A DNA stretch of 64,000 nucleotides from Pyrococcus yayanosii CH1 (GTDB lineage: Archaea > Methanobacteriota_B > Thermococci > Thermococcales > Thermococcaceae): the NCBI RefSeq assembly GCF_000215995.1, contig NC_015680.1:496001-560000 (forward strand). The letters run 5' to 3'. The position numbers and the translations under genes are program-made. Under the pieces are notes generated by a model that had not been told where the DNA came from, searched no databases, and worked only from the letters and a program-made list of their open reading frames with translations. The stretch's first letter is position 1, and the number at the start of each line of letters is the position of its first letter. Below, piece by piece: positions 54,104-61,712 of this stretch.

Positions 54104-57100
54104 CTATCTAAACGCTCTGAATTTGTCCGTTCTCAGTTCTTCTTTTCTGGTCATGAGCAGGTAGAATTTTTTCCATGGCCTGAGCTTTTCGAAATGGTCT
54201 AGGTCGTGGGCGGAAAGTGTGAAGAGGTTCTCCGAGGCTATTAATATGAGCTTCTCTTTTGCCCTGCTGGCGGCGACGTTAAGCCTGTTGGGGTTGTAGA
54301 TGAAGTCGAATACTTGCATTAGGTAGGCTGGATCGCTTGATGTCATTGAGACTATTATCACGTCTCTTTCTCCTCCCTGAAATCTTTCCACAGTATCAAC
54401 TTCGGCCTTATTCCCAATTAGTGATTTTATGAGCCTTTTCTGTGCCCTGTATGGCACTACAATGCCAATGCTAAGTCCGTTCGGGATTTTGGAAACTATT
54501 TCTGCAACTAGTTTTGCTTCGAACTCGTTAATTTTTGTTGATGATGACTCTTCATGCACGATGAGGACTACGGGGTGTTTGGGGTCAAGAATCCATCCAA
54601 CCCAGCTCCTTTCTCTGGATGCTTCTCTAAGCAATTTCAGCTTTTCCTCGTCGTACTTCTTTTCGCTCTCAAGTTCTATGCCGTCGAAGATGTAGAATAG
54701 TTCTGTGTGCAACTTTGCCAGTGCTTCTGGTAGCCTATAGGTTTTTTTGAGCCTGTAAACTGGCAGGATATCGTCTTTGTTTGCAATCCATTCTGGGGGG
54801 TCTCTTCCAAGTATTCTCTTGAATTTCTTGAGCTCCCTCTCCTCAAGCTCGCCCCTAAGGAAGCGGATGAAGTTTATGGCGGAAAGGAATGGCAAGTGTT
54901 CTTCTATTGTTTTCCTGTCTTCAAGCTCCCATTCGTGAACCTGGATGGGCTGCATTTGTCGATGGTCTCCGACGATCAGAACTTGGCCTCTAGCTGGAGC
55001 CGTTGCGAGGAGGAAAATTGGGAGATCCATCATACTTGCCTCATCGACAACAACTAGATCAGCTTTTCCCCATTCTACAATTTTTGCTAAGGTTTGTGGG
55101 GTCGCGAAGAGCACCTTGACGAGTCCCCTTTTGGATATGATCGCTTCTAGGCTTCTTTGGCCTCCGCCGAAATTCAACTTCTCGTGTTCGAATTTTATGT
55201 TCTTGATTCCTTCAAGCTCTCTCTTAATGCTCTCGATGGCTTCTTCGTTTGCCAATCCCCTTATGAGCTCCACATTTTTCAGCTCTGGGATGAGGGGAGA
55301 AAGCTCCTCCAGTAATCTTGCGGTCTTTATTAGGGCCTCGTTCACGGCCCTGTGGGATATGGCAGTTACTATGAAGAGGGCATCCTTTTTCCGTTTTATG
55401 GAGGAATAGGCTCTAGCAAGTATGGCTGGGGCAACTGCTCTGGCAGTCTTCCCAGTGCCTGGAGGCCCTTGGAGAGACACGAGAAATGAGTGGATGTCCT
55501 TCACGAACTTCTTCTGCTCCTCATTAAGCTTTGCAACATTCTCAAGTTTCACAAGGAACTCTTCTATGTCCTCTTCCTGCCAGATGTTTATCTTAAAGTT
55601 GTCGTCGGATGTCTCTACTTTTCCGGCGGAATATATCGCAGAGAGCTTTTCGTATACGTAGTGTCGCTTTCCCCTGATTATCTTTTCCAGGACATCGTAT
55701 GCGCGGGACATGCTGATGTCATCGATGGATGGATCAAGGACTATGATACTGCCCTTCGAGATTACATTGGCCTTGCCTATTGTTATTTTTCCCTTCTTGC
55801 AGGAAAACCCCTCGTGAGAGAATATGAACCTGCCCCTCCCCGGCGTTCCAATTAGTTTGACCTCCACGCTACCATCATCGTGGTCTATCCTGGTTATAAC
55901 ACCAAGGGGAGATCTTCTAATGACTCTTGCGGGGTCCTCGTTACCAAAAGCTTCCAATGGAGTTACGGCAACCCAGGATCCTTCGTCTAAGTCAATCAAA
56001 ACTTCTTCCTTGGAATAGGGCCTCCAAGTTTCCGAATCTGGGAGTACTATCTTGCCCCGTATGAAGCACCCGCTTTTAGACGTGATTACATCTTCAACTT
56101 GCACAAAGGCCGATTTCTCAAGGTATGCTCGGGTTTCTCTTGGGAGTCTATAGTATTGTTCGAGCTGTTGTTTTCTCGCGAAGAATTCTAGCATCTGATA
56201 TTCCATTAAGACGCTTGCCAAGTTGGGACTCTCTAAATCAAAGCTCTCAAGTTCCCTCATGCTCAGCGGTTCCTTTGGAACCCACGCATCTTTTACCTTC
56301 TCAGGTATTCTTCTCTCGATGTGCCTCACTGCCAGAGCCATCTGCTTCAGCATCTCGAGCAGGCTGTCTTTTTTCTCATCAAGCAGGGCCTGCCAAAAGG
56401 CAGTGAAGGGTATCTGCTCGTCTTCCCTGTTGAATACAGGATACAGTGCCTTGCTTTTGCTGTCTAGACCTTCCTCCGCGATGCTGTAGAGCTTTTCAAG
56501 ATTTATTTCATAACCCCTCCTTTCCGCAAGGAACTTGAATATTTCTTCAAATCCATTCACGACTCGCCACTTAAAGCCGAATTGAGAGGCCACGAGCATT
56601 ATTCCAAGCCCAGGCGGGAATCGTAACGCGTGCCTTGAGATGAGTTCGTCCTTTATTATAGAGTAGCCTTCTTGATCTATCGCCCGCCTAAGGCTGAGTA
56701 ATGCTCTAATGGCTCTGCTACCATAAAGGTGGGGATGCCTCCTAACGGCATCCATCAGTGCGTCGCGGTGGAACCTGCTGTAAAAGTAAAGGTGGAGGAA
56801 CACTTCATCCCCATTACAGGATTCTACTTTCCTTCCAACTTTGTATGTCTCGCCTTCCAGGTTGGGGGCCACTTGGCGAATGGCAGCGAACAGCTTCCTA
56901 AAGAACTTATCCAGCATGAGCCCCTCAAGCTTTTCTCCAATTTCGGGATCCATTGGAGGTTCCTCAACAACTTCAGCCACAATCTCCATCTTTCCAGTCA
57001 TAGTATTTTCAACGACGGCGGATGCTCCAAGTAACGTATCAGTTATGTGGCTTTGTTCAATGAAGAGATAAACTCTAACCAGTGAGCCTGCCGGATAATT

Positions 57101-58222
57101 TTCAGGACATTTACCCTCGCAGGTATCCTTTGGTAAGTTATACCCAGTCCCCGGAATGAACTCAGGCCAGGCTTTATCCCCTGGCACTCTGTCGAGCTCC
57201 CTCTTTATCACCTGAGCCAATCTGGAGAGCTTTGGAAGGTTCGTTATGCCCACAACTCTCATCAGTTTTAGAACAATATCGGGCCTCCTCATCACAGGTT
57301 CCGAAAAGTTCGTCGGCCAAAGCGAGGAAAACTCAAAGAGTCCGGCCAGGTCGTCCACAGTGTTCACTCCAACACTCTTGAAGGCCTCCTGATGGCCGGG
57401 AGGTATTCCAAGCAGTCCAAGACTTCTAGCTTCAACGGCTTCCTTTATGCACACCGGCTCAAAAGGACACTCCGCGCACCTTGCAGTTAGCCAGAGATGA
57501 GACCTTCCCCCCCTCAGCACCCTTGCAAAGGGACCATTTTCTGAAAGCTTTCCTTCAAGCGTCATTACGTATTCTTCAACATCTCTGGAGAACTCAAAGC
57601 TCTCCGGTGGCCACCCCTTCAGCTTCCCTTTGGTGATTACTGCCAGCAGAATCCTTCCCCGAATTTTAAGCTCTTCAAGCATTTGGGCTAGCAGATAAGC
57701 ATATGTAACGGCCTGAAAACGATGGGCGAGCTTTTCTTCCCTCGTGAACTTGGCCTCGAGGATATAAAAGGTGCTACCCTCCCTCACGATGAAGTCAGCC
57801 CTCCCGCTGACTATGAACGCACCGATCCTTCCTCGAAGGTGCGGCTGGTAAAGTAGAAGCTTATCCTCCCGCTTGAGAAGCTCTCCAACCCTCTCAAAAC
57901 ACTCCTGATCCGAAGAACATAGAATTATGTTTTTCGGAAAGAACCTGTTGAAAAAGGAGAAGGAACCATCCCGCTTACAGCTAGTAAAAAACCCGTAGAA
58001 TTGCGTGTTCAGTAAAATATGCCTCAGCCGCCTGAGAAGCTCAACCTCAAAATTTTCTCCCCATTTCGCGAGTGACCTACCAGCTTCCTCTTTCACCTTC
58101 AGAACAAGCTTATACTTCTCAAGTTCGCCCCTCTTATACGAGAAAAGTAGCCTCAGGTAATTTGAGCATTCCTGAAGCTCGAAAAACCTCGCTATCTCGC
58201 TGGGATGGAGTATCTCCGGCAT
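54104..58222 (-). CDS. fused PD-(D/E)XK nuclease and SF1 helicase (Cas4/Dna2-like)
   Basis: 1372 residues. The N-terminal part has VSGRADFIV (Asp about 143), ILEAKF (Glu156/Lys158) and QAVTYAYLL (Gln170), the RecB/Cas4 nuclease motifs. An early Cys (QECSNYLRL) with ARCAECPFEPVC further on fits the 4Fe-4S cluster of Cas4, AddB and Dna2. The C-terminal part is an SF1B (Dna2/Upf1-type) helicase: QGPPGTGKT near 916, VVVDEASMMDLP near 1056, VGDHRQMQPIQ, TVERFQGGERD and NVAASRAKEKL. The middle 600 residues are unassigned. ATG at 58222 with GGGGGTAGTT; the longer frame to 58249 abuts the TATA box. Lies beside an IS remnant and near CRISPR, so a defence or repair role is plausible. Confidence 0.88.
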   Translation of the reverse strand: MPEILHPSEIARFFELQECSNYLRLLFSYKRGELEKYKLVLKVKEEAGRSLAKWGENFEVELLRRLRHILLNTQFYGFFTSCKRDGSFSFFNRFFPKNIILCSSDQECFERVGELLKREDKLLLYQPHLRGRIGAFIVSGRADFIVREGSTFYILEAKFTREEKLAHRFQAVTYAYLLAQMLEELKIRGRILLAVITKGKLKGWPPESFEFSRDVEEYVMTLEGKLSENGPFARVLRGGRSHLWLTARCAECPFEPVCIKEAVEARSLGLLGIPPGHQEAFKSVGVNTVDDLAGLFEFSSLWPTNFSEPVMRRPDIVLKLMRVVGITNLPKLSRLAQVIKRELDRVPGDKAWPEFIPGTGYNLPKDTCEGKCPENYPAGSLVRVYLFIEQSHITDTLLGASAVVENTMTGKMEIVAEVVEEPPMDPEIGEKLEGLMLDKFFRKLFAAIRQVAPNLEGETYKVGRKVESCNGDEVFLHLYFYSRFHRDALMDAVRRHPHLYGSRAIRALLSLRRAIDQEGYSIIKDELISRHALRFPPGLGIMLVASQFGFKWRVVNGFEEIFKFLAERRGYEINLEKLYSIAEEGLDSKSKALYPVFNREDEQIPFTAFWQALLDEKKDSLLEMLKQMALAVRHIERRIPEKVKDAWVPKEPLSMRELESFDLESPNLASVLMEYQMLEFFARKQQLEQYYRLPRETRAYLEKSAFVQVEDVITSKSGCFIRGKIVLPDSETWRPYSKEEVLIDLDEGSWVAVTPLEAFGNEDPARVIRRSPLGVITRIDHDDGSVEVKLIGTPGRGRFIFSHEGFSCKKGKITIGKANVISKGSIIVLDPSIDDISMSRAYDVLEKIIRGKRHYVYEKLSAIYSAGKVETSDDNFKINIWQEEDIEEFLVKLENVAKLNEEQKKFVKDIHSFLVSLQGPPGTGKTARAVAPAILARAYSSIKRKKDALFIVTAISHRAVNEALIKTARLLEELSPLIPELKNVELIRGLANEEAIESIKRELEGIKNIKFEHEKLNFGGGQRSLEAIISKRGLVKVLFATPQTLAKIVEWGKADLVVVDEASMMDLPIFLLATAPARGQVLIVGDHRQMQPIQVHEWELEDRKTIEEHLPFLSAINFIRFLRGELEERELKKFKRILGRDPPEWIANKDDILPVYRLKKTYRLPEALAKLHTELFYIFDGIELESEKKYDEEKLKLLREASRERSWVGWILDPKHPVVLIVHEESSSTKINEFEAKLVAEIVSKIPNGLSIGIVVPYRAQKRLIKSLIGNKAEVDTVERFQGGERDVIIVSMTSSDPAYLMQVFDFIYNPNRLNVAASRAKEKLILIASENLFTLSAHDLDHFEKLRPWKKFYLLMTRKEELRTDKFRAFR

Positions 58223-58250: not shown

Positions 58251-58266
58251 GATGTTTATATAAATA
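58251..58266 (-). promoter_or_regulatory. TATA promoter of the nuclease-helicase
   Basis: On the minus strand GTATTTATATAAACAT lies 30-45 bp upstream of the ATG at 58222, which supports that start and a short leader containing GGGGGT. Confidence 0.55.
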
Positions 58267-58372: not shown

Positions 58373-58415
58373 TTTTTGTAAAATTTTGATCGAACACATC
58401 AAGGAGGTGCAAAAC

Positions 58416-60044
58416 GTGACAGATTACGGCATCTTGTCCCTTTTGCCCCCTCTAGTAGCCATAGGTTTGGCAATACTGACGAAAAGAGTGCTATTTGCAT
58501 TGTTCTTCGGAGTATGGGTCGGTGGCCTTTTAGTTGCAGGGGGAGACCCAATAGGAGCTACGGTTCAGACCCTCAAATGGATCGTCCTCAACATAGCCTC
58601 AGCATGGGAGGAAAACGGTCAACTAGTCACTGACCTTTGGAATACACGGATATTAGTATTTGATACATTGATCGGTGCCGGTGTGGCTTTAATATACAAA
58701 GCGGGTGGAATGAACGCCATTGCAAAAGCCGTAACAAAGAAAGTTAAAAGTAGCAGAGCTGCTTCTTTAATGGCGGCAATCTTCGGAACCATAATTTTCT
58801 TTGATGATTATACAAATACAATAATAGTCGGCAACACAATGAGACCAATAACAGACAGGACGAGAGTATCGAGAGAATTTTTGGCATACGCTGATGATTC
58901 TACGGCAGCCCCTGTGGCCGTTCTAGCAGTTGTTTCAACCTGGATAGGCTACGAACTTGGACTCTTAAAAGATGCCCTAGCAAGTATAGGAGAAAATATA
59001 AGCGCCTACTCAGCATGGTTTGCAAGCTGGCCCTACAGGTTCTATCCAATACTGGCAATAATCTTGGTTTATTTAGTTGCAATTACCCACAGACATTATG
59101 GCCCTATGCTCAAAGCCGAATACAGAGCAAGGACAACAGGAAAAGTACTCAGAGACGGCGCCCAGCCCATGATGACCACTGAAATAGATGTCGGAACGCC
59201 AATTAAGGGCAAAGAGAACATATGGGTTTTTATACTGCCAGTGATAACGCTGATAGCTTTGACTTTCATAGGACTATGGGTCACCGGTGGAGGAAGTGAG
59301 GCATATGCAAAAGGTGGATTCCAAGAGGTTCTGTCAAACGCAGATTCAACTTGGGCTCTTGTCTGGGGCTCCTTTGGAATGGTCATCGTAGCAATGGCCC
59401 TCATTCTCGGAATGAAAATCATGGATCTCAAACAAGTTGAAGAAACAATCGTTGCAGGAATGAAACAGATGCACTTTGCTATGATGATCCTCATCCTCGC
59501 CTGGAGCATTAAAAGTGCATGTGACGCCGTAGGAACTGCAGACTATGTTGTAAGAGTTGCCTCAGATATTCTCTCACCCAGCTTAGTGCCATTTGTAATT
59601 TTCGTTATCTCAGCATTCATATCATTTACCACCGGAACTTCCTGGGGAACCTTCGCAATAATGATGCCAATAGCCGTACCACTAGCCTACCACCTAAGCG
59701 GAGGCCTCGGCCCAGTTGTCTACGCCAGCATAGCCTCGGTATTTGCTGGAGGTGTCTTCGGAGACCACTGCTCACCAATAAGCGACACTACAATCATGAG
59801 CTCAATGTTCTCAGGCTGCGACCATATAGATCACGTGAACACACAGATACCATACGCACTCACCGCAGCAATCATCGGGGCCATAATGTTACTACTGTTC
59901 GCCATAGGAATAACAAACGGCTGGCTACTACTGGCCATTGCAATACCTATGTTGATAGGCTTTCACTACATTCTAAGTGAGTGGTATGGAAAGAAAGTCG
60001 GCATCCCTCACGGGAAAGTCCCAATATACATTGTAGAGGAATGA
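58416..60044 (+). CDS. nhaC: NhaC-family Na+/H+ antiporter
   Basis: 542 residues, about 12 membrane helices. FGTIIFFDDYTNTIIVGNTMRPITDR with the paired Asp, TFTTGTSWGT-like FISFTTGTSWGTFAIMMPIAVPL and SVFAGGVFGDHCSPISDTTIMSS are NhaC signatures. GTG at 58416 has AAGGAGGTG seven bases upstream; a TTG at 58386 has no such site. Codon use is more AT-rich and synonymous choices differ from the Mrp genes, consistent with recent arrival. Upstream of the CRISPR leader. Confidence 0.93.
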   Translation: MTDYGILSLLPPLVAIGLAILTKRVLFALFFGVWVGGLLVAGGDPIGATVQTLKWIVLNIASAWEENGQLVTDLWNTRILVFDTLIGAGVALIYKAGGMNAIAKAVTKKVKSSRAASLMAAIFGTIIFFDDYTNTIIVGNTMRPITDRTRVSREFLAYADDSTAAPVAVLAVVSTWIGYELGLLKDALASIGENISAYSAWFASWPYRFYPILAIILVYLVAITHRHYGPMLKAEYRARTTGKVLRDGAQPMMTTEIDVGTPIKGKENIWVFILPVITLIALTFIGLWVTGGGSEAYAKGGFQEVLSNADSTWALVWGSFGMVIVAMALILGMKIMDLKQVEETIVAGMKQMHFAMMILILAWSIKSACDAVGTADYVVRVASDILSPSLVPFVIFVISAFISFTTGTSWGTFAIMMPIAVPLAYHLSGGLGPVVYASIASVFAGGVFGDHCSPISDTTIMSSMFSGCDHIDHVNTQIPYALTAAIIGAIMLLLFAIGITNGWLLLAIAIPMLIGFHYILSEWYGKKVGIPHGKVPIYIVEE

Positions 60045-60583
60045 CCCCTTACCCTTTTTAATTCTTAACCTAACTGCCCGCAAAAGGCTCAGCAATTGAA
60101 AACGAAAATTTTTAGATACTAGTTTTGAACAGTTATTTTGCCTAAAAATGCTGAGATATTTTTCTTTTGGGCAAATGGTGGGTTGTGGGGGGTTTGGAGG
60201 GTTTTAGTAATGTTTTGTTGGTATATAACGTTTTGTTGTGTTTTTTCGTGTGTTTTGTGACGAATTTTTTTCGGAGTTGGGAGTGGGGTGGGGAGAACAG
60301 TCCTCTCACGCAAAACCCTATTGAAATTGTGTCTTTTTCCACTTACTGTTAAATTATTCCTTAATTTTTGATTTAATTGGTTGAGAAACCGTTGGAAGCC
60401 TTATGATCACTTTCGATCATTGAAATTATGGGGTTTTTTAGAAGCTTTTTACCAAAAGTTTTGACTCCTCAAGACTGCATTTCAAGCCCTCTCAAGGCCT
60501 CGTTAAGACCCCCTCGCCAAAAGATTTATAAAATCCAAGACTCCCAAGAAAAGCATAGAAGAAAACAAGCAAAAAACCCACCT
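60045..60583 (+). promoter_or_regulatory. CRISPR leader
   Basis: About 540 bp with no convincing gene, AT-rich with a GT-biased section (60170-60300). ATGATC-ACTTTC-GATCAT (60403-60420) is a hairpin. AAGATTTATAAAATCC (60521-60536) is a BRE/TATA box about 50 bp before the first repeat, placing the start of the crRNA precursor near 60558. The first bases (CCTTACCCTTTTTA) may terminate nhaC. Orientation agrees with the repeat end ATTGAAAG, the 5' tag of mature crRNA in Pyrococcus. Confidence 0.75.
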
Positions 60584-61712
60584 GTTCCAATAAGACTCAA
60601 AGAGAATTGAAAGTCCGGGCTAACCTCGTAAGTCTGGACGTTCGTCTCGGGGGTTCCAATAAGACTCAAAGAGAATTGAAAGTCCCCTGCTCCGGCTTCT
60701 TCATCGTGAAGAAGAACATCGTTCCAATAAGACTCAAAGAGAATTGAAAGCCCCGGCTCGGAGCTCAAATCAGGAAAAGGTTCAAATGTTCCAATAAGAC
60801 TCAAAGAGAATTGAAAGTTCTAATAATCACGAGTACGACGTCTTCGTCGTCATGTTCCAATAAGACTCAAAGAGAATTGAAAGTCGTTTTCTTCATTATT
60901 ATCTATGTCATTACACCTATGTTCCAATAAGACTCAAAGAGAATTGAAAGCGGGGCGCGAGCCGGCGGGAAATCCGCCCCCGCGGGGGTTCCAATAAGAC
61001 TCAAAGAGAATTGAAAGCTGGATCTCTCTGAATTCTTCTGGATCACTAGTAACCTGTTCCAATAAGACTCAAAGAGAATTGAAAGTACTGAGAAGCATTA
61101 CTATCGTGAACTCTGGGCTGTGTTCCAATAAGACTCAAAGAGAATTGAAAGTCGGGCTTCCGCCCCAGACTGGCCTGTGGACGTAAATCACGACCTCGTT
61201 CCAATAAGACTCAAAGAGAATTGAAAGGCAGTAGTTTGTGCTGCTCGTTCATAACTACATATAGTGTTCCAATAAGACTCAAAGAGAATTGAAAGGTTGG
61301 GGCGGAGATAATAGACTTCGAGGGCGCCGCGAGCGTTCCAATAAGACTCAAAGAGAATTGAAAGTCATTCGCAGTGTATAAAAACACGTGGTTGGCGGTG
61401 TTCCAATAAGACTCAAAGAGAATTGAAAGAAGAAGAAGGGTGTCGAGGATGTCGTTTTCGACGTGTATCTCGGTTCCAATAAGACTCAAAGAGAATTGAA
61501 AGCTTTGAAATTCTCGTAGAGGCCATTGGGGTCCCGGGGTGTTCCAATAAGACTCAAAGAGAATTGAAAGACGTACTCTACAAAGATCTCAAATAACTCC
61601 TCCTCGTTCCAATAAGACTCAAAGAGAATTGAAAGCTTCTTTCAAGCCGGAAATGGTTGCGGCCGGCTTGTAGGTTCCAATAAGACTCCTGGGTTCCAAA
61701 GAGAATTGAAAG
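60584..61712 (+). CRISPR. CRISPR array, 17 repeats and 16 spacers
   Basis: Sixteen identical 30-bp repeats (starting GTTCCAATAAGACTC, ending GAATTGAAAG) at 60584, 60653, 60721, 60788, 60854, 60921, 60988, 61056, 61122, 61198, 61266, 61335, 61400, 61473, 61541 and 61606, then a broken last repeat at 61674-61712. Spacers are 35-39 nt, except spacer 9 (46 nt, 61152-61197) and spacer 13 (43 nt, 61430-61472). The repeat differs at a few bases from that of P. furiosus. Transcribed left to right. No cas genes occur in the window, so processing must depend on cas loci elsewhere. Confidence 0.98.
61674..61712 (+). repeat. degenerate terminal CRISPR repeat
   Basis: The last repeat is split: GTTCCAATAAGACTC, then nine extra bases CTGGGTTCC, then AAAGAGAATTGAAAG. 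The insert ends with a copy of the repeat's own GGTTCC, as if two repeats had recombined and lost a spacer. Decay at the leader-distal end is normal. Confidence 0.85.

What the first reader, a model, noticed from the sequence alone, without database searches (positions are those of the whole stretch)
54104..58222. Lone nuclease-helicase with Cas4/Dna2-type parts as a candidate defence protein
RecB/Cas4-type nuclease motifs with a probable 4Fe-4S cluster, about 600 unassigned residues, and a Dna2/Upf1-type SF1 helicase are in one 1372-residue chain. It has its own promoter, stands between an IS scar and CRISPR-proximal DNA, and has no operon partner. It may be a stand-alone anti-invader system or a replication/repair enzyme. 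The central region is the unknown part.
Basis: partly seen in the sequence, partly recalled or inferred. Interest (0 to 1): 0.6.

Follow-up and report, generated by a model that had tools for sequence, protein, structure and literature searches.

The report
Mobile DNA2-like nuclease-helicase, probable defence enzyme
The gene encodes one large enzyme that can probably unwind and cut DNA from 5' ends, as eukaryotic DNA2 does; it is patchily distributed, moves between genomes and in relatives often sits beside antiviral or DNA-marking genes, so it more likely destroys invading DNA than replicates the chromosome, although no test of that role exists.

Summary
A 1372-aa minus-strand ORF (54104-58222) has an intact iron-staple RecB/Cas4 nuclease (D143, E156, K158, Q170, Y174; Cys19/249/252/258), about 600 residues without Pfam matches, and a complete Upf1/DNA2-type SF1 helicase. 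A central-domain profile finds the gene in 9/9 Pyrococcus but only 9/106 other Thermococci, 45/394 haloarchaea, 21/301 Chloroflexota and none of about 800 Bacilli sampled.

The window copy is not syntenic. Seven other Pyrococcus copies sit directly after an AlaX gene; that site is empty here. This copy groups with a truncated Thermococcus remnant next to phosphorothioation-type (Pbe) defence genes. Relatives adjoin DNA methylases, a type I R-M operon, Argonaute, Mrr and DruE/DpdJ-like helicases.

AlphaFold/Foldseek suggest the central region is an HhH-like segment, a degenerate RNase H-like domain, a helical part and the helicase's beta-barrel.

Catalysis is not new: a P. horikoshii "Dna2", almost certainly the ortholog, and bacterial Bad are characterised DNA2-like enzymes. 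Defence is inferred, not shown. All Pyrococcus keep the gene, three of them in a tight AlaX-gene-RFC array, so a housekeeping role remains possible. The window copy has no modification partner.

The parts
54104..58222 (-). DNA2-like nuclease-helicase gene, 1372 aa
   Evidence: intact ORF; Pfam; 22-member full-length alignment
57437..58222 (-). Residues 1-262: iron-staple RecB/Cas4-type nuclease; D143, E156-x-K158, Q170/Y174; Cys19, Cys249, Cys252, Cys258
   Evidence: PDDEXK_1 2e-7 and weak Cas4; residues conserved in all or nearly all relatives
57191..57436 (-). Residues about 263-344: helical, HhH-like segment
   Evidence: AlphaFold2 helices at model positions 7-83, pLDDT mostly 64-88; HhH assignment is inference
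56738..57082 (-). Residues about 381-495: beta-beta-beta-alpha-beta-alpha domain, RNase H-like, no conserved catalytic acid pair
   Evidence: pLDDT 71-94 over most of it; Foldseek hits mainly RNase H-fold proteins, all E > 0.01; conservation
55727..56125 (-). Residues about 700-832: beta-barrel of Upf1/DNA2-type helicases
   Evidence: strand-rich in model; Foldseek to senataxin prob 1.00 and IGHMBP2 prob 0.96 (placement on this segment is inference)
54203..55552 (-). Residues about 891-1340: Upf1/DNA2-type SF1 helicase core, Walker A at 919-926
   Evidence: (best PDB relative by profile: DNA2, 2.7e-38)
58255..58264 (-). TATA-like element TTTATATAAA before the start codon
   Evidence: read directly; not tested for function
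60563..61711 (.). CRISPR array near the gene (not shown to be functionally linked)
   Evidence: at least 16 repeats, spacing 65-76

Best explanation
The gene encodes an accessory, horizontally moving DNA2-like helicase-nuclease. Shown by sequence: an iron-staple RecB nuclease fused, through a conserved extra region, to a DNA2/Upf1-type SF1B motor. Inferred from characterised relatives (eukaryotic DNA2, Geobacillus Bad, P. horikoshii Dna2): it loads on free 5' single-stranded ends or flaps, translocates 5' to 3' with ATP, unwinds duplex and cuts the strand ahead of itself; the 4Fe-4S cluster holds the nuclease together. Inferred from phyletic pattern, turnover and neighbours: its main job is to destroy invading or unmarked DNA, as the degrading arm that many relatives pair with a DNA-modifying or guide-using partner; in Pyrococcus it acts without an adjacent partner. 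The RNase H-like central domain probably binds nucleic acid rather than cutting it, since no catalytic acid pair is conserved.
For: Complete catalytic residues in 22 relatives across archaea and bacteria. Profile best PDB hit is DNA2. Patchy distribution: 9/9 Pyrococcus, 9/106 other Thermococci, 45/394 haloarchaea, 21/301 Chloroflexota. Window copy at a different locus: the AlaX ortholog site holds cas3 instead; tree joins it to Thermococcus G026, 100/100, apart from seven other Pyrococcus, 100/100; GC3 0.53 against 0.64 +/- 0.07 in the window while other Pyrococcus copies match their neighbours. Broken or truncated copies (G026, G034). Neighbours: C5 DNA methylase in 3 loci, overlapping by about 19 bp in Hymenobacter; N6/N4 methylase in 3; hsdM-hsdS-hsdR in 2 Thermococcus; PbeA/PbeC at G026; Argonaute in 5 locus entries, some of them the same plasmid reached twice; Mrr in 2; DruE/DpdJ-like helicase operon in 7. 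PADLOC at 1e-10: 115 families among 96 neighbours against 8 (three proteins) among 96 controls; a conservative count of 12 against 3 proteins gives p = 0.014. Bad neighbours a type III-like methyltransferase and its authors propose a novel restriction enzyme (PMC7430649).
Against: No partner beside the window copy. Retained in all 9 Pyrococcus genomes, with AlaX synteny and, in three, 28-35 bp ahead of RFC-large. The neighbourhood signal comes mostly from haloarchaeal plasmids and islands, which are defence-rich anyway; the control is same-genome, mostly same-contig, but small, and most of the counted helicases belong to one homologous operon. Direction of transfer between P. yayanosii and Thermococcus is not resolved, and P. 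yayanosii may simply be an early Pyrococcus branch with a fast-evolving gene. No assay of any member as a defence protein was found.
Confidence: 0.55

Rival explanations
1. Housekeeping archaeal Dna2: 5'-flap trimming on the lagging strand or end resection in Pyrococcus, secondarily lost in most Thermococcus and sometimes carried by plasmids elsewhere.
For: 9/9 Pyrococcus have it; AlaX-gene-RFC-large-RFC-small tight co-directional array in the P. abyssi- and P. horikoshii-sized genomes and G002; P. horikoshii Dna2 was studied on flap substrates (Higashibata 2003, known here only through PMC7303207, and recall).
Against: Absent from 97 of 106 other Thermococci; evolves much faster than its neighbours (51-75% identity between species groups where AlaX is 86-95%); relocated in the window genome; RFC linkage absent in four of seven Pyrococcus loci; defence neighbours elsewhere.
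Confidence: 0.3
2. Genetic-element enzyme: a replication or recombination helicase-nuclease of plasmids and integrated elements that ends up beside defence genes only because islands collect both.
For: Several copies on haloarchaeal plasmids, some beside primase, Orc, PolB or integrase genes; transposon-like remnant next to the window copy.
Against: No full-length match in 50,697 phage records or in viral contigs; all seven plasmid records matched by the central domain are typed non-mobilizable; recurrent same-strand pairs with methylases and SF2 helicases in different genomes and in two domains of life.
Confidence: 0.12

Closest known systems
Pyrococcus horikoshii Dna2 (Higashibata et al. 2003, JBC 278:15983)
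   Same: G007 has the genome size of P. horikoshii OT3 (recall) and holds only one RecB-plus-SF1 protein in our search, 55% identical to the window protein over its length, so it is almost certainly the enzyme studied.
   Different: Other locus and lineage: the window copy groups with Thermococcus G026. The paper itself was not readable here.
Bad, bacterial DNA2-like enzyme of Geobacillus stearothermophilus (PMC7430649)
   Same: Iron-staple nuclease, long central region absent from eukaryotic DNA2, SF1B helicase; sporadic distribution; methyltransferase neighbour.
   Different: 1245 aa. Sequence homology of the two central regions was not tested: the Bad sequence was not obtained, and profile A4 found nothing credible in about 800 sampled Bacilli.
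Eukaryotic DNA2
   Same: Domain order nuclease, beta-barrel/stalk, helicase; best PDB profile match.
   Different: Extra HhH-like plus RNase H-like plus helical insert; neither universal nor syntenic.
CnuH, SF1 UPF1-like helicase of type II/III CoCoNuT systems (PMC11090510)
   Same: UPF1-like helicase with stalk and OB-fold recruited into restriction-like systems.
   Different: CnuH associates with McrB-type GTPases and coiled-coil nucleases; the window gene carries its own RecB nuclease and no such partners.
Mokosh MkoA (PADLOC)
   Same: Helicase core similar, 6e-48 over 894-1336 only.
   Different: Similarity limited to the helicase; no Mokosh partner gene in the window.

Membership tests
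DNA2-like nuclease-helicases (broad) | N-terminal RecB-family nuclease with active-site residues | tested here: met
DNA2-like nuclease-helicases (broad) | Four iron-staple cysteines spanning the nuclease domain | tested here: met
   C19, C249, C252, C258; cluster itself not assayed
DNA2-like nuclease-helicases (broad) | C-terminal Upf1/DNA2-type SF1B helicase with beta-barrel | tested here: met
   helicase; beta-barrel by model only
DNA2-like nuclease-helicases (broad) | 5'-3' translocation, flap/ssDNA cleavage | not testable with these tools
   reported for Bad and eukaryotic DNA2 (PMC7430649)
Orthologue of eukaryotic DNA2 | Universal in the lineage | tested here: not met
   absent from 97 of 106 other Thermococci
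Bad family | Central conserved domain homologous to Bad's | not tested
   Bad sequence not obtained; central profile without a credible match in about 800 Bacilli sampled
Bad family | Methyltransferase gene next door | tested here: not met
   none recognised in the window near the gene; met in several relatives
CRISPR Cas4 | Small stand-alone nuclease encoded with cas1/cas2 | tested here: not met
   1372 aa fusion; no cas gene among the neighbours examined; a cas operon is near 1.27 Mb
Mokosh (MkoA) | Full-length MkoA match and its partner gene | tested here: not met
   helicase-only match; no partner in window
Restriction-modification or Dpd system component | Modification gene in the same locus | tested here: not met
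   none beside the window copy; present beside several relatives

The most novel reading that the evidence does not exclude
A family of DNA2-like effectors, found in archaea and bacteria, that share a degenerate RNase H-like central domain acting as target or modification sensor, and that plug as the degrading arm into many modification- or guide-based defence systems (5mC, m6A/m4C, type I, phosphorothioate, deazaguanine-like, Argonaute), with Pyrococcus carrying a solo version.
Probability: 0.33. Interest if true: 0.72.

Novelty: new variant of a known kind. Interest (0 to 1): 0.5.

Why it matters
If the defence reading is right, 'archaeal Dna2' of Pyrococcus, usually cited as a replication enzyme, is better seen as an accessory DNA-degrading effector, and the unanswered question of what Bad-type enzymes do gains many testable operons, including compact two- or three-gene sets with a DNA methylase. 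It would also give a common mechanism, an unwinding and cutting motor that starts at 5' ends, shared by otherwise unrelated modification and guide systems.

Tried and rejected
(1) A TGT-like neighbour in four Thermococcus loci was first read as DpdA; its DUF5591 domain suggests archaeosine synthase ArcS, and the next gene is TmcA, so these look like ordinary chromosomal sites. (2) Homology of the central region to RecB-HhH-RNase_H_2 proteins: hhalign probability 1%, not supported by sequence. (3) Any PDB sequence relative of residues 262-560: none at E up to 10. (4) Viral or phage origin: no full-length match. (5) Finding Bad by profile in Bacilli: no credible match. (6) Housekeeping as sole explanation: kept as a rival at 0.3.

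Full report
WHAT IS THERE. The window is bases 496001-560000 of a 1,716,818-bp single-contig genome, the size of Pyrococcus yayanosii CH1 (recall). The minus strand holds one intact ORF, 58222 to 54104, 1372 aa. Pfam sees a PD-(D/E)XK nuclease at 136-258 and an AAA_11/AAA_12 helicase at 899-1331 and nothing between. Aligned with relatives, D143, K158, Q170, Y174 and three cysteines are invariant and Cys19 nearly so, the iron-staple pattern; the SF1 motifs are complete. The nearest gene upstream is a divergent Na+/H+ antiporter and a CRISPR array lies 2.3 kb beyond the start codon. The gene has its own TATA-like element.

DISTRIBUTION. A profile of the central region alone (which avoids generic helicase hits) matches 18 of 115 Thermococci genomes: all 9 of this genus and 9 of 106 others. 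It matches 45 of 394 haloarchaea, 21 of 301 Chloroflexota, single Armatimonadetes, cyanobacterial and Bacteroidota genomes, and gave nothing credible in about 800 Bacilli. Full-length relatives occur on haloarchaeal plasmids but none was found in phage records or viral contigs. In five loci the protein is split into a nuclease-central and a helicase polypeptide (L054, L216, L217, L224, L231).

THE WINDOW COPY HAS MOVED OR ARRIVED. In seven other Pyrococcus loci the gene directly follows an AlaX-type editing gene (4-76 bp). The AlaX ortholog of this genome (88% identical) is at 1,277,551 with a cas3 gene beside it and no copy of our gene. A maximum-likelihood tree joins the window protein to Thermococcus G026 (100/100) and puts the seven other Pyrococcus together (100/100). 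Identity to other Pyrococcus copies is 51-56% where AlaX is 86-89% and the metallophosphatase 80-85%. Third-position GC is 0.53 against a window mean of 0.64 (SD 0.07), while in the other Pyrococcus genomes the gene matches its neighbours. Gene transfer or relocation both fit; direction is not resolved.

NEIGHBOURS OF RELATIVES. G026, the closest relative, is a remnant holding residues 733-1372 only, beside PbeA (8e-210) and a PbeC/DndD-type protein (2e-76), components of phosphorothioation-based exclusion (PMC6459918). Two Thermococcus copies follow hsdM, hsdS and hsdR. C5 DNA methylases adjoin the gene in two haloarchaea and a Hymenobacter, there with an overlap of about 19 bp. Split copies in three haloarchaea lie beside an N6/N4 methylase. 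Argonaute (5 locus entries, some the same plasmid reached by two routes), a Mre11-like phosphoesterase and Mrr endonucleases recur, and seven haloarchaea share an operon in which the gene is followed by a DruE-like DEAD helicase, two unknown proteins and usually a STAND-type NTPase. Four haloarchaeal loci carry a GHKL ATPase, a TGT-like protein weakly DpdA-like and DUF6884 nearby. Against same-genome, mostly same-contig control genes, PADLOC families matched at 1e-10 were 115 versus 8; counting only clearly distinct proteins, at least 12 of 96 versus 3 of 96, p = 0.014. Most of the helicases among the twelve belong to one homologous operon, so this is support rather than proof.

THE CENTRAL REGION. 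AlphaFold2 of residues 262-898 from eight sequences gave mean pLDDT 69. Foldseek puts senataxin (prob 1.00) and IGHMBP2 (0.96) among the matches, consistent with the strand-rich 700-832 part being the usual beta-barrel of Upf1/DNA2 helicases. Modelled alone (residues 262-560, pLDDT 62), the first half has a beta-beta-beta-alpha-beta-alpha core whose Foldseek list is dominated by Argonaute PIWI, RNase HI, endonuclease V and Prp8 RNase H-like domains, all with E above 0.01. No acidic pair is conserved in it; the invariant residues are E433 and H477. Sequence comparison gives no relative. I regard RNase H-like, non-catalytic as likely but unproven.

MECHANISM. Shown here: complete nuclease, iron-staple and motor residues. 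Shown elsewhere for relatives: 5'-3' motor, unwinding, nuclease, Fe-S content, preference for 5' tails in Bad (PMC7430649). The P. horikoshii enzyme is reported as a Dna2 ortholog tested on flaps (cited in PMC7303207; further details are recall). Inferred: this copy does the same and mainly degrades foreign DNA. The authors of the Bad paper had already suggested a novel restriction enzyme because of a methyltransferase neighbour; the present data extend that pattern to many relatives of the Pyrococcus protein, though homology of the two central domains was not tested.

WEIGHING. The main counter-evidence is complete retention in Pyrococcus and the AlaX-gene-RFC array in three genomes. I give defence 0.55, housekeeping 0.3, element enzyme 0.12. 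The protein class is known; what is new is the family-wide association and the partial resolution of the central region.

Noticed in passing
L054, L216, L217, L224, L231: Relatives in which the nuclease-central part and the helicase are separate adjacent ORFs, some with a DNA methylase in the same run of genes.
   Followed up: partly
L045, L046, L202, L207, L210, L215, L231: Recurrent haloarchaeal operon: gene (or split pair), DruE-like DEAD/MZB helicase of about 1578 aa, two proteins without Pfam or PADLOC matches, usually a STAND-type NTPase; may be an undescribed defence system.
   Followed up: partly
L032:16740-20004 and L212, L225, L227: Cassette of GHKL ATPase, TGT-like protein (weak DpdA) and DUF6884 within a few kb of the gene, in two of the four with QueC/D/E genes: possible archaeal deazaguanine DNA modification.
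   Followed up: partly
L042:360-12000: Thermococcus G026 contig end with a truncated copy of the gene beside PbeA, a PbeC/DndD-type protein and an HmaC/DUF499-like ATPase.
   Followed up: partly
L035-L041 and L146:12187-13053: HSDR_N-type nuclease family near AlaX in six of seven other Pyrococcus loci and in this genome, very fast evolving (46-88% identity); in two genomes it sits tail to tail with the DNA2-like gene.
   Followed up: no
L043:7999-12377: Thermococcus G034 copy is broken by a frame change near residue 105.
   Followed up: no
window 58386-60044: Na+/H+ antiporter next door has the lowest third-position GC (0.45) of the 31 long ORFs in the window, so the foreign-looking stretch may include it.
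   Followed up: no
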